A DNA stretch of 64,000 nt from assembly GCF_900104765.1 (NCBI RefSeq), contig NZ_LT629737.1, forward strand, positions 248,001 to 312,000, given 5' to 3'. Of the stretch, positions 1,739-13,766 are shown one piece after another. This stretch comes from Gillisia sp. Hel1_33_143. GTDB lineage: Bacteria > Bacteroidota > Bacteroidia > Flavobacteriales > Flavobacteriaceae. Positions within the stretch are counted from its first letter, which is position 1. Each line of letters opens with the position of its first letter. Position numbers and translations under genes: made by a program. The notes beneath the pieces were generated by a model, which worked only from the letters and a program-made list of their open reading frames with translations, searched no databases and had not been told where the DNA came from.

Positions 1739-4147
1739 ATGGCAAAAATTAAGCACAATAACCTTCTGGATACTGTAATTTCGGTAATGACGAATGCAAA
1801 AGAATCGGGAGTCTTGCATTTATATGCTGAAGGTGAAAAATTTGATGGTAGACAGATTCAGATAAAAGGGAAGAAACTTTTTCATTTTGGTACTACAGGC
1901 TATTTAGGTTTAGAACAGGATTATCGACTGAAGCAAGGAGCTATAAATGCAATTAATTCCTATGGATCTCAATTTCCCCTTTCCAAATCTTATATATCTC
2001 AACCATTGTATGCAGAATTGGAATCTCTTTTATATGATATTTATGGAAGCCCAGTTGTAATAACCAAGAATAGTACGCTTGGTCATTTAGGAGTAATCCC
2101 CTCGATTGTGGATGATAGCGATGGAGTGATTTTAGATCATCAGGTACATTGGAGTGTTCAGAGCGCTGTAAATCCGTTAAAGCTGCGTTCGGTTCCTGTA
2201 GAAATGATTCGTCACAATAATCTGGAAATGTTGGAAGACAAAATTAGAAAACTACAATCTAAGTGCAAGAAGATTTGGTACATGGCTGACGGTATGTATT
2301 CCATGTATGGTGATTATGCTCCTATTAAAGAATTAATGCAACTATCCGAAAAATATCCACAACTTCATATTTATTTTGATGATGTGCATGGAATGAGTTG
2401 GAAAGGTAACAACGGTAGCGGATATGTGATGAGTGTTTTAAAAAAGCTACCCGATAGGATGATACTTTTTGGAACGCTTGGCAAAACATTTGGTGCTGGC
2501 GGTGCTGTAATGGTGTGTAACGATAAAAAAATACATCAAAGAATCAAAATTTTTGGAGGTCCCCTAACATTTTCTGTGCAATTGGAACCAGCCACCGTTG
2601 GGGCAGCTATTGCATCTGCAAAGATCCATTTAAGCGAAGAAATATATGAAATGCAAGACGATCTTTACGATCGAATTTCCTATTTCAATCAATGTTTGCA
2701 GAAAACAAACCTTCCTTTAATAATAAACAACAATTCGCCAATATTCTATATAGGGGCGGGTATGCCAGAAACAGGATTTAATTTAGTGAATAGGCTTATT
2801 GAGGCTGGGTTTTATGTAAATTTAGGTATGTTTCCAGCTGTTCCCGTAAAAAATACAGGCCTAAGAATTACAATATCTAGACATAATCAAAAACAAGAAA
2901 TTAAAGCCTTAGTAGAAGCACTTGAATACCATTTTCCAAAAGCTCTTGCAGAAACACATACAAATCTTGATCGTGTGAATTTCGCATTTGGTCGAGGAAA
3001 TAATAAAATGACCACATCCACACAGTCCAGATCAAACTTAACCTTAGAAACCTATAATTCAATCAAACATATTGATCCTAAATTATGGAATGAAACTGTG
3101 GGAGGTAATAGCTTTTATGACTGGAAAGGACTTAAGGACTTGGAAGGGGTTTTTAAGAATAATAGCTCTCCCGAAAACAATTATCAATTCTATTATTATG
3201 TAGTAAAAAATGATAAACAAGAGTGCATTTTAGCTACTTTTTTTTCTTATGGATTATGGAAAGAAGATATGCTTGCACCGGAGTCTGTTTCTGTTAAATT
3301 AGAAAAGATGAGGGAGGGTGAACCTTATTACCATACAAGCTATTGCCTTAGTATGGGTTCTATGATCACCGAGGGTGAACATTTATATTTATGCCAAGAC
3401 AAATCTGATTGGAAGGAAGCTTTTAACCTATTACTAGAGCAATTAGAAATATTAGAAAAAAAATTAAAACCTCAGTATGTCATTCTTCGGGATTTTAACA
3501 CAGCGGATAAAGCCATAAAAGCTTTTCTACATAATAAAGGTTTCGTTCAGGTTGCTATGCCCGAAGCGGCTGTCTATGATCAATTCAATTGGAATGATGA
3601 GGCTTCCTACATTGAAACACTAAGCAAAAGCTCCAGAAAACATTTCAGAAAAGATATTGAAGCTTTTAGAGATAAGTTCGAAATTCAGGTCTTGGATGAA
3701 TTATCAAATATAGAATTAGAAAAGAGTTTTGAACTTTATCAACAAGTAAAGAAGAATAATTTAGGACTCAACACATTTAGTTATCCTTTATCGCTTTTTA
3801 AGCACATGAATTTATCTCCACAATGGGAATACATACTTTTATATTTAAAGGAAGAAAAAATGCTTCAAGTCGGAGTAATGTTTTGCTATAAAAATTCCAA
3901 TAATATTTACACTCCTGCAATTATAGGAATGGATTATGAATTCTCCAGAGAATATAATGTTTATAGACAGCTGTTGTTCCAGACCATATTACGAGCAAAT
4001 GAGTTAGGCAATAAGAGAATAGATTTTGGTCTAACCGCTGGTTTTGAAAAACACAAAGTAGGTGCCAAGGTTTTGGAAAAGTGTGCCTACATACAAACGA
4101 AGGACAACTTTGCTTTGGAAGCCTTAGACTGGTTAAGAAAAGATTAA
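1739..4147 (+). CDS. Fused alpha-oxoamine synthase and GNAT-type acyltransferase
   Basis: Residues about 35-400 form a fold-type I PLP enzyme of the alpha-oxoamine synthase family (relatives: KBL, AONS, serine palmitoyltransferase, CqsA). The conserved YFDDVHG is at 212-218, with D214 and H217 expected to contact the cofactor. The Schiff-base lysine is K249 in GTLGKTFGAGG. Such enzymes condense an amino acid with an acyl thioester. After a linker, residues about 440-800 resemble a GNAT/FemAB-like acyltransferase (SSRKHFRKDIEAF; NELGNKRIDFGLTAGFEKHK). The fusion is known in Bacteroidota, but its product is not established; a modified amino-lipid or a CqsA-like signal is inference. It is monocistronic or leads into the rteC-like gene 50 bp downstream. 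Confidence 0.85.
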   Translation: MAKIKHNNLLDTVISVMTNAKESGVLHLYAEGEKFDGRQIQIKGKKLFHFGTTGYLGLEQDYRLKQGAINAINSYGSQFPLSKSYISQPLYAELESLLYDIYGSPVVITKNSTLGHLGVIPSIVDDSDGVILDHQVHWSVQSAVNPLKLRSVPVEMIRHNNLEMLEDKIRKLQSKCKKIWYMADGMYSMYGDYAPIKELMQLSEKYPQLHIYFDDVHGMSWKGNNGSGYVMSVLKKLPDRMILFGTLGKTFGAGGAVMVCNDKKIHQRIKIFGGPLTFSVQLEPATVGAAIASAKIHLSEEIYEMQDDLYDRISYFNQCLQKTNLPLIINNNSPIFYIGAGMPETGFNLVNRLIEAGFYVNLGMFPAVPVKNTGLRITISRHNQKQEIKALVEALEYHFPKALAETHTNLDRVNFAFGRGNNKMTTSTQSRSNLTLETYNSIKHIDPKLWNETVGGNSFYDWKGLKDLEGVFKNNSSPENNYQFYYYVVKNDKQECILATFFSYGLWKEDMLAPESVSVKLEKMREGEPYYHTSYCLSMGSMITEGEHLYLCQDKSDWKEAFNLLLEQLEILEKKLKPQYVILRDFNTADKAIKAFLHNKGFVQVAMPEAAVYDQFNWNDEASYIETLSKSSRKHFRKDIEAFRDKFEIQVLDELSNIELEKSFELYQQVKKNNLGLNTFSYPLSLFKHMNLSPQWEYILLYLKEEKMLQVGVMFCYKNSNNIYTPAIIGMDYEFSREYNVYRQLLFQTILRANELGNKRIDFGLTAGFEKHKVGAKVLEKCAYIQTKDNFALEALDWLRKD

Positions 4148-7181: not shown

Positions 7182-7236
7182 TAAAGTCAAACCCCATTAT
7201 TTTTAATTTACATTTATTGGGATTGTGTCAAGAAAA

Positions 7237-8727
7237 TTAAAAACTAAACAAGGAATTTATAGATTCTTTTAAATAAGTATAAAATCCTTTGTTCTTTTTA
7301 TTCACTAATGAATTTTCATGTTTAATTCTAATATTGTCTGCTGCTAAATGTTTTATTATCAAATTTTTATTTAATTCATCTGCACTACCAAGTAAACCTT
7401 GAGAAATTACACAATCTTGTCTGCATTCATTTTCAAAATCAAAATCTATGTTACCTGTATTAAAATCCATTTCTTTTGGACCATAATAAATTCCTCTAGG
7501 TTTCAAAATCAAGGATAAGAATTGTTGTATTTCCATTCCTGCCAAACTCAAACTAAAACCAAAAACATTTTCACCTCTATTAATAAAATGATTTTTTGGT
7601 AAGCCTTTAATATAATTAGGATTGTCCAATTCTCCAGACATTTCCAATGCAGCATCTTCAGGTTTATATTGCCCTAAACATTGCATACAGATTCTTTCAG
7701 GTCCAATTGTGTGAGCCTTCCATCTAGCTTGATCTATATTAGATAAATCTTCCATTGGGTTTGTATCAATTCCACCATCAATTACTGGTATTAAATTCGC
7801 AAATGATAAACAATCTAAAGTGTATCTCGGCAAAGGCATATCTACACAAGAAAATAATATATCGCAATCTAGAGCTGCATCCTGTCCTTCTTTTTCAGTA
7901 ATACTAAATGGGACAGCATTAATACTTAAATCTGAAATAAGCTCGGTACTTAAAAGACGTTCTTTAAGAACATCTACTTTAAATTTGCCTACATCTACCC
8001 TATTTACTGCTAATAATCTATCTAAATTTTTCAATTCAACTACATCAAAATCTATAAAGGTTAAGTTTTTTATACCAGTTCTTAGAAGAGCTTCAGCAAC
8101 AATGGAACCAACACTACCTAATCCAACTATTCCAATTTTTAACCTAGTAATTTCATGCTGCTTTAAATCTCCCCAAGATGAAATAGTACGTTTAAACTCT
8201 TCTCCGAAATTAGATTTTGGCAAAACATCGTCACAAAAATATGTTTTTAGAGACTTCCCTACTACCCTTACAGATTCACAACAATAACGTTCATAAGTAT
8301 TTGGAGCTTCTTTAATCCAAAAGCGAGCACTCCAATAGTTATCTGTTCCAAGTGTCATTCCAATTAATGGTAATCCAGTTACTGCCTTAACTCTTGGTGC
8401 TAACATTTTCTCTGCTTCAATGTCATCAAAGCTCATTCCTTGCCAACCCGGATAAGGATGGCTATGGATAAAACAGATTCCTAAATTATTAGCTAACGCA
8501 TAAGAAGTCACTTTATCAAAATAAACTGAATTAAAACTTACGTTTCCATGTACATTTCTGTCCCCGAATTCTGGCAAAATCATTTCATTAATCACTCCTG
8601 TTTTCCTTGATTTTCCAGTAGACAACTTATAAAATGCAAAACATAAATCTTCTTGACCATCCTCTCTAATGAGGTGTTCAAAAAGTATCCTATTGACACT
8701 TTCTGTCATTGTTATGCTATATTTCAT
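7237..8727 (-). CDS. JAB peptidase - E1 (ThiF) fusion, ubiquitin-like pathway
   Basis: The N-terminal domain (about 1-140) is a JAB/MPN metalloprotease: metal ligands H88 and H90 in HSHP, and S99/D102 in SFDD. The spacing HSHP-x7-SxxD is one residue longer than the canonical JAMM form. The C-terminal domain (about 175-430) is a ThiF/E1-like adenylyltransferase with GLGSVG at 202-207, acidic D226/D228, N234 and R237, and a CxxC at 347-350 typical of a zinc site. In bacterial Ub-like systems the JAB trims the Ub-like precursor or removes the tag, and the E1 adenylates its C-terminal glycine or equivalent. It is the last gene of the three-gene Ub operon and overlaps the E2-like gene by 4 bp. Confidence 0.88.
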   Translation of the reverse strand: MKYSITMTESVNRILFEHLIREDGQEDLCFAFYKLSTGKSRKTGVINEMILPEFGDRNVHGNVSFNSVYFDKVTSYALANNLGICFIHSHPYPGWQGMSFDDIEAEKMLAPRVKAVTGLPLIGMTLGTDNYWSARFWIKEAPNTYERYCCESVRVVGKSLKTYFCDDVLPKSNFGEEFKRTISSWGDLKQHEITRLKIGIVGLGSVGSIVAEALLRTGIKNLTFIDFDVVELKNLDRLLAVNRVDVGKFKVDVLKERLLSTELISDLSINAVPFSITEKEGQDAALDCDILFSCVDMPLPRYTLDCLSFANLIPVIDGGIDTNPMEDLSNIDQARWKAHTIGPERICMQCLGQYKPEDAALEMSGELDNPNYIKGLPKNHFINRGENVFGFSLSLAGMEIQQFLSLILKPRGIYYGPKEMDFNTGNIDFDFENECRQDCVISQGLLGSADELNKNLIIKHLAADNIRIKHENSLVNKKNKGFYTYLKESINSLFSF

Positions 8728-9083
8728 TCGAAATCTAATAATGTTCTTAAAAATGCTAAATAATCATCTGCAGTCATTCCAGAAGTCCATCCTTTAAATG
8801 GACGACTCCAATACTGAAATTCAGGTGTTGGAACTTTTCTGTCATGTATTCCACCAAAAGGATGCACTCCTCCACCTCCAGTAATTGGAAGTATATGTGG
8901 TTTAATATGTGGTCCTGAAGGTGGTAATAAAGGAAATTGCTGACCTTGTAAAGCTATTTCAATTTCTTGCCCTTTAAACCTTCCTAATGGTACGATAAAC
9001 TTGAAGCACACAAAGTTATTTGTGTGCATCCAAGTTTCGAGCCCTTTGTTTTGCAACTGACTCATCAACTCTTGATTTCCCAT
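8724..9083 (-). CDS. E2/UBC-like protein of the ubiquitin-like operon
   Basis: This 119-residue protein is recognised by context and by the pattern of prokaryotic E2/UBC-like proteins: a strand pair (VCFKFIVPLGRFKGQEIEIAL), a proline-rich turn (FPLLPPSGPHIKPHILP), a GGGGVHPFGGIHDR loop and a C-terminal helix (TADDYLAFLRTLL). Its only cysteine is C26 in an early strand; there is none near the loop where an E2 catalytic cysteine would sit. It could be a non-catalytic adaptor, or use a histidine of the HPFGGIH loop. The gene lies 2 bp after the double Ub-like gene and overlaps the JAB-E1 gene. Confidence 0.7.
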   Translation of the reverse strand: MGNQELMSQLQNKGLETWMHTNNFVCFKFIVPLGRFKGQEIEIALQGQQFPLLPPSGPHIKPHILPITGGGGVHPFGGIHDRKVPTPEFQYWSRPFKGWTSGMTADDYLAFLRTLLDFE

Positions 9084-9085
9084 AA

Positions 9086-9529
9086 CTATGAAACAGTTGT
9101 AGGTTCAAGCTTGCAAGAACTAAATTTAAGACCATTTTTAATAGCTATTTTATGTTCTCTGTCATTCTTATAACTAACTTCTTTATGTCCACTAATCTGT
9201 TTTAAATAAAACCCATTAGCATCTTTTCCTGCAGCAGTTAATATTTCATTTGGTGTCATGAAACATTCATCGACTTCTAAGGGTTCATCATCAACATAAA
9301 TTATTAGCATCTTATAAGGTTTAGCAAAAAAGCCTTCAATCCCCGCACCTTTTAAATCAATTTTTTCATCTAATTGAAGGGGCTCGAAACCTCTTTCGTT
9401 TACCTTAATTAATAATTCATAATCTTCTACAGGTAATAAATTTGCGTTTTCTAAAATTTCTTTTCCTGTAATAATTGCGTCAACAGTTTCAAATTTTTCT
9501 CTGTTAACTTTGTAAATAAAATTTCCCAT
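9086..9529 (-). CDS. Multiubiquitin-type protein with two Ub-like domains
   Basis: Two tandem beta-grasp-like domains are visible. The first runs from MGNFIYKVNREKFE through ITGKEILENANLLP to GIEGFFAKP; the second from KMLIIYVDDEPLEV through MTPNEILTAAG to HKIAIKNG. The repeated (T/P)xxEIL-x-AAG/ENA element is typical of the multiubiquitin family. The protein would be the modifier, activated by the adjacent E1. The C-terminus (EPTTVS) lacks a diglycine. The frame stays open to a TTG at 9613, but ATG 9529 is preferred: it begins at the first domain strand, and a 9-bp inverted repeat sits over the upstream alternatives. Confidence 0.75.
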   Translation of the reverse strand: MGNFIYKVNREKFETVDAIITGKEILENANLLPVEDYELLIKVNERGFEPLQLDEKIDLKGAGIEGFFAKPYKMLIIYVDDEPLEVDECFMTPNEILTAAGKDANGFYLKQISGHKEVSYKNDREHKIAIKNGLKFSSCKLEPTTVS

Positions 9530-9553
9530 TGGAATAATTGTATTAAATATTAA

Positions 9554-9584
9554 TGTTCTCATTTTTTCTGACAGCATGAGAACA
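9554..9584. promoter_or_regulatory. Inverted repeat upstream of the Ub-like operon
   Basis: TGTTCTCAT (9554-9562) and ATGAGAACA (9576-9584) are perfect 9-bp arms around a 13-bp spacer. The element lies 25-55 bp upstream of the chosen start, as an operator would. The same region contains two TGTCAGA copies. Confidence 0.5.
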
Positions 9585-9724
9585 GACACTGTTTTTGACG
9601 TATCTGACAACAAAACTTGTGTAATATTTAAAAAATCATTACCATTGTATACAGTACAAAGGGAGTTATAAGGTGGATAAGCCTTATATTATAGAGTCCG
9701 TCAAAACTTTAAATCCCATTTTAT

Positions 9725-9764
9725 AATCCAATTTATTGTTCAAGCAATAGATTGGATTTTTTAT
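9725..9764 (+). terminator. Hairpin with T-run between the two defence modules
   Basis: AATCCAAT (9725-9732) pairs with ATTGGATT (9751-9758), and TATTG/CAATA pair inside it. A T-rich run follows on the plus strand. It separates the protease gene from the Ub-like operon, both minus-strand; in that direction the T-run precedes the stem, so termination there would be weak. Confidence 0.5.
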
Positions 9765-9802
9765 TTCTCTTATCGGCTTATTTTTTTAAGATTAAACATA
9801 TA

Positions 9803-12490
9803 TTATCTTACCCAACCCAGCATTAATAGTTTATTCATATTACTATTGATACCAGATTGTATTAATTTATTACTATCCAATTTATTAATTTCCATTTTTC
9901 TAATTTCTTCATCTAATGGCATATAATTAATTGCTACTTCCTCAACTTGATTTTCTAAATATTTAGATAACGTGTCGAAGTCGTTTGCTGTGAATCCTTC
10001 AGTTTGATTATCAATATCATATTCGAAAATCAATGTATTATTCTCTAAATCAGGTTGGGCTGTATTCATAAGTATTTCAGCTCTTTTAATTGCTTCAATT
10101 TCCCAAAGTTGCAGCTCGTCATCTGCTACTTTTGTACCTATTGAAGAATCAACCTCTATTCGGATTTCTTCCCTTATTTTTATATTAGAGTGCAGAAAGT
10201 TCCTATCTGCTAACAACCTAGATACCTCATTGTAAACTTGTTGTTGTCCTTTTGTATCTCGTATTGTCACTATCATAGTAAAATCTTGATTTAAAACTTC
10301 ACCATCTTCTTTTGATCTTGTTTCTGCAAATTCTCTATATTCCCCCTTTATTATAGTATACCATTTTCTTCCTTTGGCTAAACTGTCTCTTTGTCTAGCA
10401 GCTGTCATTTCATCTAGGTTTATTGAGTATTTTTTAACAGGCTGATATTTTTTACCGTAATTTAATAGCATTCGTTCTCTAGCATAATCACTAGATGTAT
10501 CCTTCTTATAAGAGCTACCGTAGTTCGAATCTAGTATTACATTTTTTGGATCGTCCGGACCTATTGGATTTAGAATATTGGATTTGGTAGTATCTCTATT
10601 CTTTATGTCATCATATGTACCAAATTGTAATTTGAGATTTGATTGGCAGTATTCAGCTCCTTGTTTCTCCCTTAAAACAGGTTGTGCTACCAATGTTATT
10701 TTAACTTCACCATAAAAGAAACCATTCTCATCGATTAAGCTTTCAGGAAAGGGGAAATCAAGAATTTCTATAAATTCTCCTTTGTTTATGTTCTCCTGTA
10801 ATATTAAAGTAATTTCGTGTGGGTCATTATAGATAATATCATCAGCAGATGAAGCAACTCCAAAACCCATTTGATTTACTTTGTCGCTTATTGAGAAATT
10901 AATTCCTAATGGATATTTAGCTGAATGAATGGCTAGTGCCTTTAATAACGTTGGATTAAAATTTTCTTTTACTTTAAAGTTCAGTTCTGATAACAGTGAA
11001 GTTACTCTGGGTGTAGAAAAACTAGTTCCAATTATTTTTACCATGCTGCCATCTGGTGCAATAGCTTTTACACCATTCTCAACTCTTCTTCCTCCTTTCA
11101 TTCCAGCATTACCTCCATATGAGACTAAATCTGGTTTGATACTATTAGCAGGACCTGGACCAATTCTAGTAAAAGGTGATGGATGATTTACTTCTGCAAT
11201 ATCACTTTCATTTTTTGAATGCGTTAGTGACCCTACCACAATTGAACGCATTGAGTCTCCTGACCTAGCAACCCTGCTCTTAGGAAAACCACTCTCAAAA
11301 TTTCTGCAATTTCCTATAGACTTGCAAATAATTACTTCATTTGATATTTGAATATCATCTAAAGCCTTACCGAAATCTGAAAAATCACTTAAATCCGATT
11401 CAGATCCTGTACCTAAGGAAAGGTTCCAAATTTTAATATCAGAATTATTTTTTATTGCAGTTCTAATATTTAAGATTAGTTCATCTTCATCTATACTCTC
11501 CTTTTTGTCATCAGGAAATACTGTTGCATCAAAGAGTTTACACCCTGAATTACCTGTCCAATTTTGACCTTCCAATTCATCACCATAAATAATAATACTT
11601 GAAACACAAGAGCCATGAGTTGGATTTATTAAATCCTCTGGGTATGACGAATAATTTCTATCAAGAAGCCAAGGTTTTAGGTATTTATTTTTAGCGATAC
11701 CAGAATCCAAAACTCCAATAATAGGATACTCTTCATCCGCAATTGGTTCTTTAACCTCAAGCGACTCAGTAGTTTCTAATAAATCCATGCCAACACTATA
11801 TTTGGGCATAAACGTTATAGATTCTAAGGCTTCAAAATCACTTATACTATCTAATTGTGCTTTGGTAGCATTTTTGAGTTTAAAAATTATTAAGCCCGAC
11901 GAATAATTGCTTTCTATAATATCTAAATTCTTTTGCTTACAGTATTTTTCAAATGAGGCCTTGACCGCATTATTTATTTCGTAATTTAGAAAATCTATTA
12001 GTGAAATTTTAACCGTCTCATTTTCTTTAATATCTGCAATAAACGGTTCAAATACTTTTACAGCCTCAACAGCAGAAATAGCTTTAGGATTTTGGCTATA
12101 GTTTTTGATATTTCTCTTTATCGCATTATTATCTTCAATACTGTCTACTTTCACAATAGCACTATTGGAATTTATAAAACCAATTATATTATTCTTTGTA
12201 AACTGACCATTAAATAATTTCTGAATGTCTTTTCTGTGTGATTTTGCGATAGCATTATCATCAATATCTACACGCAAAGTTGCCGGAATGAAACTCCTTG
12301 CATTATCACGAGTATTAAAAAAACTATCCAATTCACTTAAAGGCTCCAATAGACTATTTGCTCTAGATATAAGTTCTTCACCTTCAAGTTGCCATTTTGG
12401 TGGAATATTACTATTCATGCCTTCAACTCTTCTATCGTCTATTTTTTGTCTCTTTTGAAAGAGTTTTATTGGTAAATTTTTCTTAGCCAT
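9803..12490 (-). CDS. Subtilisin-like (S8) serine protease
   Basis: An 895-residue protease without a signal peptide, so probably cytoplasmic. The catalytic triad is D262 (GVLDSG), H292 (PTHGSCV) and S490 (GTSFSTP), and the oxyanion asparagine is N394 (SIGN). About 250 residues precede the domain and 380 follow it; neither flank resembles a secretion domain. It lies 1 bp after the AAA+ gene. Cytoplasmic S8 proteases encoded next to an AAA+ ATPase are a recurring pair in defence islands, where the ATPase is thought to control or feed the protease. Whether it also serves the Ub-like module downstream is unproven. Confidence 0.9.
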   Translation of the reverse strand: MAKKNLPIKLFQKRQKIDDRRVEGMNSNIPPKWQLEGEELISRANSLLEPLSELDSFFNTRDNARSFIPATLRVDIDDNAIAKSHRKDIQKLFNGQFTKNNIIGFINSNSAIVKVDSIEDNNAIKRNIKNYSQNPKAISAVEAVKVFEPFIADIKENETVKISLIDFLNYEINNAVKASFEKYCKQKNLDIIESNYSSGLIIFKLKNATKAQLDSISDFEALESITFMPKYSVGMDLLETTESLEVKEPIADEEYPIIGVLDSGIAKNKYLKPWLLDRNYSSYPEDLINPTHGSCVSSIIIYGDELEGQNWTGNSGCKLFDATVFPDDKKESIDEDELILNIRTAIKNNSDIKIWNLSLGTGSESDLSDFSDFGKALDDIQISNEVIICKSIGNCRNFESGFPKSRVARSGDSMRSIVVGSLTHSKNESDIAEVNHPSPFTRIGPGPANSIKPDLVSYGGNAGMKGGRRVENGVKAIAPDGSMVKIIGTSFSTPRVTSLLSELNFKVKENFNPTLLKALAIHSAKYPLGINFSISDKVNQMGFGVASSADDIIYNDPHEITLILQENINKGEFIEILDFPFPESLIDENGFFYGEVKITLVAQPVLREKQGAEYCQSNLKLQFGTYDDIKNRDTTKSNILNPIGPDDPKNVILDSNYGSSYKKDTSSDYARERMLLNYGKKYQPVKKYSINLDEMTAARQRDSLAKGRKWYTIIKGEYREFAETRSKEDGEVLNQDFTMIVTIRDTKGQQQVYNEVSRLLADRNFLHSNIKIREEIRIEVDSSIGTKVADDELQLWEIEAIKRAEILMNTAQPDLENNTLIFEYDIDNQTEGFTANDFDTLSKYLENQVEEVAINYMPLDEEIRKMEINKLDSNKLIQSGINSNMNKLLMLGWVR

Positions 12491-12491
12491 C

Positions 12492-13580
12492 TTACTCTAC
12501 ATTTAATGCGTTTCTTACTTGTCTTATTGAAATATCTAGGTAATTAGCTATTTGTTTTTGAGGTATATGACTCTCATTTAAAAAACGTATCATTTCCTCT
12601 GGCGTAAACCTGTTGTTATGTTTGTATTTGAAGTATTCAGAAAAAATTTCATCATATTCAAATTCTTTATTTTTAATGATCGAATTATAAAATGCACTAT
12701 TTATAATCTTAATTATTTCAGAATGCGAGAAATCATTTAAATAAGAAGACAACATATCAAACTTCTTGTCTTCAATATCCAATTTAGAGTCTACTTTATT
12801 AAAATAGCTCCCTATAAGGTTCTTAATTTCATCTGAATTTGGTTTGTTTACATTGATTACTTTTTCAAATCTTCTCCAAATGGCACTATCTAACAATTGT
12901 TCGTGATTTGTAGCAGCAATTAGAATACCTGTTTCTAAAAAATCGTCAATATTTTGAAGCAAACTATTGATTACCCTTTTTAACTCTCCTGTTTCATGAT
13001 TATCGTCTCTTGCTTTAGCAATTGCATCAAACTCATCAAGAAATAATATGCATGGTTTACTTTTTGCATAATCAAACAATTTTCTGATATTCTTTGCGGT
13101 ATTACCTAAAAGTGATGATATTAAAGAATCAAATCTAGCAATTACTATAGGAATATCTAATTCTTTAGCAATATGCTTAGCTAAAGTAGTTTTACCACAT
13201 CCAGGTGGGCCATAAAGTAATAATGATAAATTCATTTGCAGTCCTTTACTTTCTATTTCATTTTTTGAATTAACCAGAGAAATAAAATTATTCACAGGGT
13301 TTTTGATACTATCAGAAAGTAAAATATCTAACTTTATATCTTGAGGTAAAATGATGTCAGCAATATTTAGCCTTGTATCATTATCTACGGGCGCGTCAAA
13401 TAATTGATCTTTAAATACAGGAATACCTGTTGAACCTTCAATAGTTTTAATAATCTTATCTGCAAGTTTATCCGCCCCATCTTCTCTTAACTTTTTTGCC
13501 AAGTGCTTAGAATAGCTGATAACCTTCTTTGGATCGTGATTAAGACCACCTTCAATTATTTTAATGAGCTCTGTATACAT
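12492..13580 (-). CDS. AAA+ ATPase paired with the S8 protease
   Basis: A classical AAA+ module: Walker A GPPGCGKT at 124-131, Walker B LFLDEFD at 179-185, sensor asparagine N225 (AATNH) and arginines R236/R237. It resembles the FtsH/katanin-like clade often paired with cytoplasmic proteases. The C-terminal 30 residues (IPQKQIANYLDISIRQVRNAL) form a helix-turn-helix, so the protein may bind DNA. Its own upstream region contains six 21-bp phased repeats, which would suit autoregulation. It starts the AAA-protease gene pair. Confidence 0.88.
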   Translation of the reverse strand: MYTELIKIIEGGLNHDPKKVISYSKHLAKKLREDGADKLADKIIKTIEGSTGIPVFKDQLFDAPVDNDTRLNIADIILPQDIKLDILLSDSIKNPVNNFISLVNSKNEIESKGLQMNLSLLLYGPPGCGKTTLAKHIAKELDIPIVIARFDSLISSLLGNTAKNIRKLFDYAKSKPCILFLDEFDAIAKARDDNHETGELKRVINSLLQNIDDFLETGILIAATNHEQLLDSAIWRRFEKVINVNKPNSDEIKNLIGSYFNKVDSKLDIEDKKFDMLSSYLNDFSHSEIIKIINSAFYNSIIKNKEFEYDEIFSEYFKYKHNNRFTPEEMIRFLNESHIPQKQIANYLDISIRQVRNALNVE

Positions 13581-13586
13581 ATATCT

Positions 13587-13712
13587 GTAATATTATTTTA
13601 AATTTACGTTACAAATATAACTATAAATGTAATAATAAAACATAACTTCGTAATTATTTTTTTAATTTTCGTAATATTTATTTAACAGAGTGTAATAAAT
13701 TTTAATTATTTT
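13587..13712. promoter_or_regulatory. Six direct repeats of GTAAT phased at 21 bp
   Basis: GTAAT (or GTTAC) begins at 13587, 13608, 13629, 13650, 13671 and 13692, every 21 bp, which is two helical turns. All lie on one face of the DNA immediately upstream of the AAA+ gene start. Cooperative binding of a repressor or of the ATPase's own C-terminal HTH is a reasonable inference. Confidence 0.65.
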
Positions 13713-13766
13713 GTTGTATATGAAGACTTTAAAGCACCACTCCACAGAAGTAGAGCTCGTCCCTTC

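What the first reader, a model, noticed from the sequence alone, without database searches (positions are those of the whole stretch)
7237..13580. Ubiquitin-like conjugation module beside an AAA+ ATPase and a cytoplasmic subtilase
The sequence shows a double Ub-like protein, an E2-like protein and a JAB-E1 fusion in one operon, immediately next to an AAA+ ATPase (own HTH) and an 895-residue S8 protease with no export signal. Both parts are known separately in defence islands. Their adjacency and shared strand raise the possibility of one system: tagging followed by ATP-dependent recognition and proteolysis. A hairpin and 189 bp lie between them, so they may also be two independent systems.
Basis: partly seen in the sequence, partly recalled or inferred. 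Interest (0 to 1): 0.8.

Follow-up and report, generated by a model that had tools for sequence, protein, structure and literature searches.

The report
Protease toxin joined to ubiquitin-like operon
A mobile DNA element in a bacterium of the Flavobacterium family carries two known immune-type gene sets, a protease with its ATPase guard and a bacterial ubiquitin-like tagging operon, joined into one travelling block; similar pairings are seen in several relatives, but each half also lives alone, so a shared tag-and-destroy machine is not shown.

Summary
The genes are real. 13580-9803 (minus strand) is IetAS: an AAA+ ATPase (IetA) and an S8 protease (IetS), a known toxin-antitoxin/defence pair. 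9613-7237 is a Bub operon (BubA multi-Ub, BubB-like E2, BubCD JAB-E1), predicted in 2006 as operon type 6e, with solved Citrobacter relatives.

The pairing is probably more than one accident. The same five-gene block (window 7229-13746) sits in two other contigs with unrelated or rearranged flanks. IetAS of this clade also precedes a different Bub subtype in two Flavobacterium-genus genomes and a 6A-MBL-like operon on two Hymenobacter plasmids: 7 of 13 assessable clade loci, three kinds of module, against 0 of 34 other IetS-like loci.

The halves are separable: the trio exists without IetAS (89.5% DNA identity), IetAS without the trio, and the halves have different histories. In 23 of 38 other Bub loci the IetAS position holds a recognisable regulator.

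Tag-then-degrade has no specific support. I favour two working modules packaged as one immune cassette, with IetAS in the regulator slot.

The parts
7229..13746 (-). Five-gene cassette: the stretch homologous to L082 and L083, with the same two ends in both comparisons (the ends are breaks on the window's side; L082 and L083 share about 85 bp more upstream and about 280 bp more downstream with each other)
   Evidence: blastn 91.7% to L082 and 90.5% to L083; junction sequences
12492..13580 (-). ietA: AAA+ ATPase, 362 aa, HTH-like C-terminus
   Evidence: PADLOC IetA PDLC02196 454.7 bits; NCBIfam IteA 357 bits, below its cut-off of 510; HTH sub-threshold
9803..12490 (-). ietS: S8 subtilase, 895 aa
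   Evidence: PADLOC IetS PDLC02201 1111 bits over residues 1-781; NCBIfam IteS 349.4 bits, below its cut-off of 900
9806..10156 (-). C-terminal extension of IetS (117 aa), seen only in the window, L082 and L083
   Evidence: no other homologue among the loci then held; IetS of L141, L089 and L180 ends near residue 790; dN/dS 0.29-0.51 against 0.07 in the core; no fold match
9530..9766 (-). Leader of the Bub operon, homologous to the leader of the IetAS-free trio in L127
   Evidence: blastn block 7229-9766 against L127; alignment; the sigma-70-type scan lists no minus-strand promoter-like site here
9725..9758 (.). Conserved inverted repeat (14-bp arms, 6-nt loop)
   Evidence: same pattern in L082, L083, L127, L120, L123, L128, variant in L180, not found in L089; one copy in genome
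9086..9613 (-). bubA-like multi-ubiquitin protein (two Ub-like domains; likely true start near 9529)
   Evidence: PF14452 1.7e-13; profile of ten homologues hits Citrobacter BubA 3.9e-5
8724..9083 (-). bubB-like E2/RWD-like protein, 119 aa, no cysteine common to its homologues
   Evidence: position; alignment; non-significant match to Citrobacter BubB, E 0.94
7237..8727 (-). bubCD-like JAB-E1 fusion, 496 aa
   Evidence: ThiF 1.8e-30; Citrobacter BubCD 9ea4 1.7e-16 by phmmer, 4.6e-32 by profile

Best explanation
A mobile immune cassette made of two known modules set head to tail on one strand. Upstream, IetAS is expected to act as elsewhere: the AAA+ ATPase IetA restrains the cytoplasmic subtilase IetS, and a disturbance such as phage infection releases the protease, harming the infected cell. 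Downstream, the Bub operon is expected to adenylate the C-terminus of its double Ub-like protein with the E1 part of BubCD, attach it to targets with BubB, and remove it with the JAB part. The two act in parallel. They were joined, and IetAS was also joined to other Ub-type operons, because the combination or its shared control is useful: IetAS sits in the place where other Bub operons carry their regulator. Shown: gene content, cassette ends, occurrence as a block in different surroundings, recurrence, separability. Inferred: all biochemistry and the benefit of the joining.
For: Family assignments. The block 7229-13746 recurs in L082 and L083; the window's flanking genes are absent from L082, and in L083 the transfer genes lie on the other side and are 41-84% identical. 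IetA-IetS-Ub-E1-DUF6527 in L089 and L180 with no shared flanking gene. IetA-IetS-MBL-E2/E1/JAB in L141 and L183. The only two genomes of a 395-genome phylum sample with an IetS over 1000 bits (own, G154) are both Bub-linked. dN/dS 0.02-0.15 in the genes apart from the IetS extension. Separability: L127 trio alone, L091 and others IetAS alone; mosaic halves. Toxin and antitoxin roles shown for the related SGI1 pair sgiAT (PMC5006074, passages). IetAS showed synergy with Zorya II but not with Kiwa, as reported in PMC13427033 (passage), so parallel action with another system is plausible.
Against: The association could still be clustering of defence genes: other clade members neighbour GASH/GAP1 or nSTAND genes or, by eye, Pycsar-like ones. 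The clade scan was seeded with two Ub-linked proteins, so its sample is biased. Only 8 of 113 plasmid records with an IetS-like match were opened, and none of the 10 phage records. Bub operons had not been shown to protect against phage according to PMC13373217, although PMC12687455 says such systems appear to act mainly in phage defence. The IetS extension, found only beside Bub, hints at a tighter link than 'parallel'.
Confidence: 0.55

Rival explanations
1. IetAS is the regulator and trigger of the Bub operon. IetA, with its HTH-like end, silences the downstream operon; activation of IetS cuts or releases it, much as HTH plus protease pairs (CapH/CapP) do for other Bub operons.
For: In 38 Bub loci without IetAS, the slot upstream holds M78-peptidase (ImmA/IrrE) proteins in 15 (8 by Pfam, 7 by similarity to the HTH/M78 protein of L127; in two of the 15 it is the third gene), sigma-70-like proteins in 5 (3 over Pfam's cut-off), WYL in 2, an HTH/STAS-like protein in 1, an MqsR/Panacea toxin-antitoxin pair in 2, LytTR in 1, and nothing recognised in 12. 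In the 5 IetAS-linked Bub loci the gene next to the Ub gene is ietS. PMC13373217 (passages) reports 219 of 544 Bub operons with CapW or CapH+CapP and 59 with CapK+CapS.
Against: The HTH-like end of IetA is equally present in stand-alone IetAS and is below Pfam's cut-off. The inverted repeat is shared by leaders preceded by ImmA/IrrE, toxin-antitoxin and IetAS genes and is missing from L089, so it is not an IetA-specific site. L083 has an M78 gene about 2 kb further upstream. 12 of 38 loci show no recognised regulator, 4 of these not scanned.
Confidence: 0.2
2. One pathway: Bub tags proteins, the p97-like IetA recognises and unfolds them, IetS degrades them.
For: Joining of IetAS to three kinds of Ub-type module. 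IetA's best solved relatives are p97/CDC48. The 117-aa IetS extension is confined to Bub-linked copies of one cassette. PMC7159879 (passages) describes other conflict systems joining Ubl conjugation, FtsH and a caspase-like peptidase.
Against: Both halves occur alone. The other Bub- or 6A-linked IetS proteins lack the extension. No Ub-binding domain was recognised in IetA or IetS by Pfam. Similarity to p97 is general to this AAA class.
Confidence: 0.1
3. Pure coincidence: cargo genes landed side by side in a conjugative-element hot spot and spread.
For: IetAS lies beside the same element ATPase gene, with other cargo, in L084, L088, L090 and L091. Three of the seven linked loci are one cassette and two plasmids share the same annotated proteins.
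Against: Further joinings with different Ub-type modules and other flanks and 0 of 34 in other IetS-like loci. Fisher 2.7e-5 raw, 0.005 when collapsed to three joinings in eight; neither is corrected for sampling or kinship.
Confidence: 0.15

Closest known systems
IetAS (Ti plasmid pTiC58; SGI1 sgiAT; NCBIfam IteA/IteS; PADLOC IetA/IetS)
   Same: AAA+ ATPase gene directly followed by a cytoplasmic S8 protease gene; PADLOC scores 455 and 1111 bits
   Different: NCBIfam scores are below the equivalog cut-offs; IetS carries an extra 117-aa C-terminus
Bub (bacterial ubiquitination-like; Citrobacter BubA, BubB, BubCD; PDB 9ea4, 9ea8, 9eae, 9eav), the same layout as operon type 6e of Iyer et al. 2006
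   Same: multi-Ub, cysteine-less E2-like, JAB-E1 fusion in that order
   Different: distant in sequence from the Citrobacter proteins; preceded by IetAS instead of a regulator
6A-MBL anti-phage system
   Same: a Ub-type module of this layout lies downstream of the same IetAS clade in L141
   Different: not present in the window; assigned in L141 by architecture, the NCBIfam 6A-MBL model was not run on it
FtsH ternary systems (Kaur et al. 2020, PMC7159879)
   Same: Ubl conjugation beside an AAA+ chaperone and a peptidase
   Different: different proteins: FtsH, vWA-MoxR, caspase-like peptidase, RING E3 (passages)

Membership tests
IetAS | IetA-type AAA+ ATPase with intact Walker motifs, directly before ietS | tested here: met
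   PDLC02196 454.7 bits; GPPGCGKT and LFLDEFDA in the alignment; order
IetAS | IetS-type S8 protease with catalytic triad | tested here: met
   PDLC02201 1111 bits; in the six-row alignment D, H and S positions are invariant, the middle residue of DSG is not
IetAS | NCBIfam equivalog cut-offs for IteA/IteS | tested here: not met
   357 against 510 bits and 349.4 against 900 bits: same family, other branch
IetAS | toxicity of IetS relieved by IetA; phage protection | not testable with these tools
   toxicity reported for sgiAT; not assayed here
Bub / type 6e | tandem Ub-like protein | tested here: met
   two PF14452 stretches; BubA match 3.9e-5
Bub / type 6e | JAB fused N-terminal to E1-like domain | tested here: met
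   BubCD alignment residues 6-321; JAMM residues invariant in 7 of 7
Bub / type 6e | E2/RWD-like protein without catalytic cysteine between the two | tested here: inconclusive
   right position, no cysteine shared by all seven homologues; profile match to BubB only E 0.94; structure model pLDDT 48, unusable
Bub / type 6e | protein conjugation activity | not testable with these tools
CapH/CapP-like regulator beside Bub | HTH + M78 peptidase gene next to the operon | tested here: not met
   neighbours of the cassette are an amidase and a DnaC-like ATPase; own-genome search with the L127 regulator gives only a weak partial hit (E 4.3e-4, residues 8-94) about 2.6 Mb away

The most novel reading that the evidence does not exclude
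IetAS, a protease toxin with its ATPase antitoxin, has repeatedly been recruited as the sensor and switch of ubiquitin-like conjugation operons (Bub of two kinds and 6A-MBL), taking the slot of regulators that in other Bub operons respond to DNA damage, so that release of the protease also turns on protein tagging: a two-stage immune response in one mobile cassette.
Probability: 0.18. Interest if true: 0.75.

Novelty: new variant of a known kind. Interest (0 to 1): 0.5.

Why it matters
Bub operons have no demonstrated role in phage defence (statement in PMC13373217), and searches listed no paper that I recognised as giving a mechanism for IetAS. A naturally joined, mobile pair with clean ends, plus close relatives holding only one half each (L127, L091), gives ready-made material to test whether the halves help each other and whether IetAS controls Bub.

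Tried and rejected
Considered and rejected: the hairpin as a plain terminator of ietS, because no T-run follows it on the minus strand (the scan calls it terminator-like only on the plus strand), and the same repeat precedes Bub genes that have no co-directional gene just before them (L127, L120, L123). The hairpin as a dispersed repeat: one copy in the genome, no exact match in viral contigs. A known RNA family: the best match over the hairpin is 22.7 bits against a gathering score of 55.8. An origin of the IetS extension: no match among the loci held, only Pfam matches below cut-off (DUF4854 E 0.0049), no Foldseek match at E<=0.001 for a pLDDT-75.6 model. Viral contigs as a source of relatives: one truncated IetS, none for JAB-E1 or the E2-like protein. 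Direct repeats at the cassette ends: only 7-bp A/T-rich matches. The identical block ends in L082 and L083 are not proof of two independent insertions: the break is on the window's side, and L082, L083 and L127 share sequence beyond the window's 3' end.

Rows dropped from the IetS clade count (17 loci): L086 (0.9 kb downstream only), L092 (contig ends inside ietS), L093 (ietS broken, 1.2 kb downstream), L177 (ietS open for 484 aa only, no Ub gene seen). L088 was kept although its ietS is split in two frames. The 34 controls are L142, L144-L171 and L172-L176; of the 28 loci L144-L171, 23 show an IetA, and the other five may not all be IetS; several are at contig ends. L142 is counted as outside the clade (31% identity) although the tree places it inside with weak support. 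One of the 36 Multi_ubiq loci (G278:C14) is below Pfam's cut-off, and a few lie at contig ends with little upstream sequence (L128, L131, L132).

The tree of 17 IetS rows (partial and outside rows included) needs two changes of the Bub label, which may be two gains or a gain and a loss; L141 has a long branch. I read separate joinings because the Ub modules differ in genes and sequence, not from the tree alone.

Literature: searches listed no paper that, by title and abstract start, describes IetAS beside Bub; the library is open-access PMC only. The main Bub paper (PMC12885553) is not held and nothing of it was read. I read passages, not whole texts, of PMC1779556, PMC13373217, PMC11354881, PMC12687455, PMC5006074, PMC7159879 and PMC13427033.
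Full report
What is there. The window is a 64-kb piece of a 3.48-Mb single-contig genome, of the same family as Flavobacterium sp. 7A (G154 and L089 are the same 34,602-base contig). Around the finding it holds genes of a Bacteroidetes-type conjugative element: RteC (PF09357) and TraG (TIGR03783 over its cut-off). Between them lie five minus-strand genes, in transcription order: AAA+ ATPase 13580-12492, S8 protease 12490-9803, multi-ubiquitin 9613-9086, E2-like 9083-8724, JAB-E1 8727-7237. Coordinates and strand in the finding are right.

What the parts are. The ATPase and protease are IetA and IetS: PADLOC 454.7 and 1111 bits. They fall below NCBIfam's equivalog cut-offs, so they belong to another branch of the family. 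Family members act as toxin (protease) and antitoxin (ATPase) in SGI1 (PMC5006074, passages). NCBIfam labels the family anti-phage. The other three are a Bub operon, with the layout of operon type 6e of Iyer et al. 2006 (PMC1779556, passages): the JAB-E1 protein matches Citrobacter BubCD (1.7e-16; profile 4.6e-32), and a profile of the multi-Ub proteins matches BubA (3.9e-5). The E2-like protein fits BubB only by place, a WSR motif and a non-significant match (E 0.94). It has no cysteine common to the seven aligned homologues. In the seven aligned JAB-E1 proteins the only invariant cysteines are those of one CxxC. Seven of ten aligned Ub proteins, those of this type, end in V-S or V-A, and none of the ten ends in glycine.

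The five genes recur as a block. Against Algibacter MAG contig L082 and Arenibacter contig L083, the homologous DNA is window 7229-13746 in both comparisons, 91.7% and 90.5% identical. No other gene in L082 matches the 26 kb of window compared. In L083 the transfer genes lie on the other side of the block and are 41-84% identical at protein level, against 91-98% inside the block. The equal ends are breaks on the window's side: L082 and L083 share a little more with each other (about 85 bp upstream, 280 bp downstream). dN/dS is 0.02-0.03 in IetA, 0.07 in the IetS core and 0.06-0.15 in the trio.

IetAS meets other Ub modules too. A scan of the 84,980-species contig collection with an IetS alignment gave 12 loci. 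With a plasmid search, a genus search and a viral-contig scan the clade has 17 loci including the window. Thirteen can be judged. Seven have a ubiquitin-type module directly downstream on the same strand: the window, L082 and L083 (one cassette); L089 and L180, two Flavobacterium-genus genomes with a different Bub subtype (Ub, E1, DUF6527; IetS 75%, Ub 48%, E1 59% identical to each other, no shared flanking gene); and L141 and L183, two Hymenobacter plasmids with an MBL-like gene and an E2-E1-JAB fusion, i.e. a 6A-MBL-like operon. Six have none: L084, L085, L087, L088, L090, L091. Of 34 IetS-like loci outside the clade none has such genes in the stretch fetched. In a sample of 395 genomes of the phylum only two hold an IetS over 1000 bits, the window's own and G154, and both are Bub-linked. 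Fisher's test gives 2.7e-5 raw and 0.005 when collapsed to three joinings in eight. These values are rough: the clade scan was seeded with Ub-linked proteins, contigs differ in length, and only 8 of 113 plasmid records with an IetS-like match were opened. A tree of 17 IetS proteins needs two changes of the Bub label, two gains or a gain and a loss; the different make-up of the modules is my reason to read separate joinings.

But the halves are separable. From the Bub side, IetAS stands beside 1 of 36 other Multi_ubiq loci examined. L127 has the same trio (DNA 89.5%, window 7229-9766) without IetAS and with an HTH/M78 regulator gene in its place; L091 has the same IetAS (78%, window 10165-13699) without the trio. 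Within the cassette the IetAS half of the window is closest to L082, most of the trio to L083, and the leader to L127. So the halves, and the leader, have recombined separately.

The joint. Between the two homologous blocks lie the last 117 codons of ietS, absent from the stand-alone IetS proteins compared and from L089, L180 and L141. The stretch evolves fast (dN/dS 0.29-0.51), is modelled with moderate confidence as an alpha/beta domain (pLDDT 75.6 from three sequences) and matches no solved fold. Its restriction to the Bub-linked cassette is the one structural hint of a closer link, but it is one lineage only.

The slot before Bub. In 38 Bub loci without IetAS the upstream neighbours are M78-peptidase proteins in 15 (8 by Pfam, 7 by similarity to the L127 protein; third gene in L068 and L136), sigma-70-like in 5 (3 over cut-off), WYL in 2, HTH/STAS-like in 1, an MqsR/Panacea toxin-antitoxin pair in 2, LytTR in 1, none recognised in 12, of which 4 were not scanned. 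This agrees with published counts for Bub (219 of 544 with CapW or CapH+CapP, 59 with CapK+CapS; PMC13373217, passages). In the five IetAS-linked Bub loci ietS takes this place. IetA has an HTH-like C-terminus, conserved in the clade whether or not Bub follows and below Pfam's cut-offs.

The hairpin. The inverted repeat at 9725-9758 is a feature of a group of Bub leaders: pattern matches in L082, L083, L120, L123, L127 and L128, a variant in L180, none in L089, one copy in the genome. It stays the same whether IetAS, an M78 regulator or a toxin-antitoxin pair lies upstream, so it belongs to the Bub unit. The promoter scan shows no excess over shuffles and no minus-strand site in the leader. 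Its role is unknown.

Judgement. The one-system reading is half right: the pairing recurs and the block is found whole in different surroundings, but neither half depends on the other for existence, and nothing here shows that IetAS acts on Bub-tagged proteins. I give 0.55 to two parallel modules packaged together, 0.2 to IetAS as the switch of Bub, 0.15 to coincidence, 0.1 to tag-and-degrade. Ubl conjugation beside an AAA+ chaperone and a peptidase in conflict systems is already published for other proteins (PMC7159879, passages), so this is a new variant, not a new kind.

Noticed in passing
L121:9932-11316, L128:7724-9095: MqsR-like toxin plus MqsA/Panacea antitoxin genes directly upstream, same strand, of Bub-type Ub genes in two genomes; in L128 the Ub ORF is short and no E1 gene was found before the contig end.
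   Followed up: partly
L065, L066, L071, L080, L135 (upstream of the Ub gene): Sigma-70-like proteins (3 of 5 over Pfam's cut-off) encoded divergently next to Bub operons, several with a small unknown partner: possibly another regulator type for Bub.
   Followed up: partly
window 9725-9758 and L082, L083, L120, L123, L127, L128, L180: Conserved inverted repeat about 200 bp before this group of Bub operons; operator or RNA element, not decided.
   Followed up: partly
window 9806-10156: Fast-evolving 117-aa C-terminal extension of IetS of unknown origin, only in the Bub-linked cassette.
   Followed up: yes
L064:9169-9741: Fusion of two DUF1508 repeats to a Multi_ubiq domain.
   Followed up: no
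L149, L150, L164: IetA and IetS genes on opposite strands facing each other instead of in one operon.
   Followed up: no
L084:12371-17950; L091:12282-14194: IetAS immediately followed by a GASH/GAP1-EAD1 GTPase-centred conflict system in L084, and by a Pycsar-like cyclase and membrane protein in L091 (by eye).
   Followed up: no
L142 (Enterococcus faecium plasmid): An IetAS pair flanked by TIR-domain genes on a conjugative resistance plasmid; described only.
   Followed up: no
window 1739-4147: An 802-aa ORF that looks like an aminotransferase fused to an acyltransferase beside the conjugative element genes; judged by eye only.
   Followed up: no
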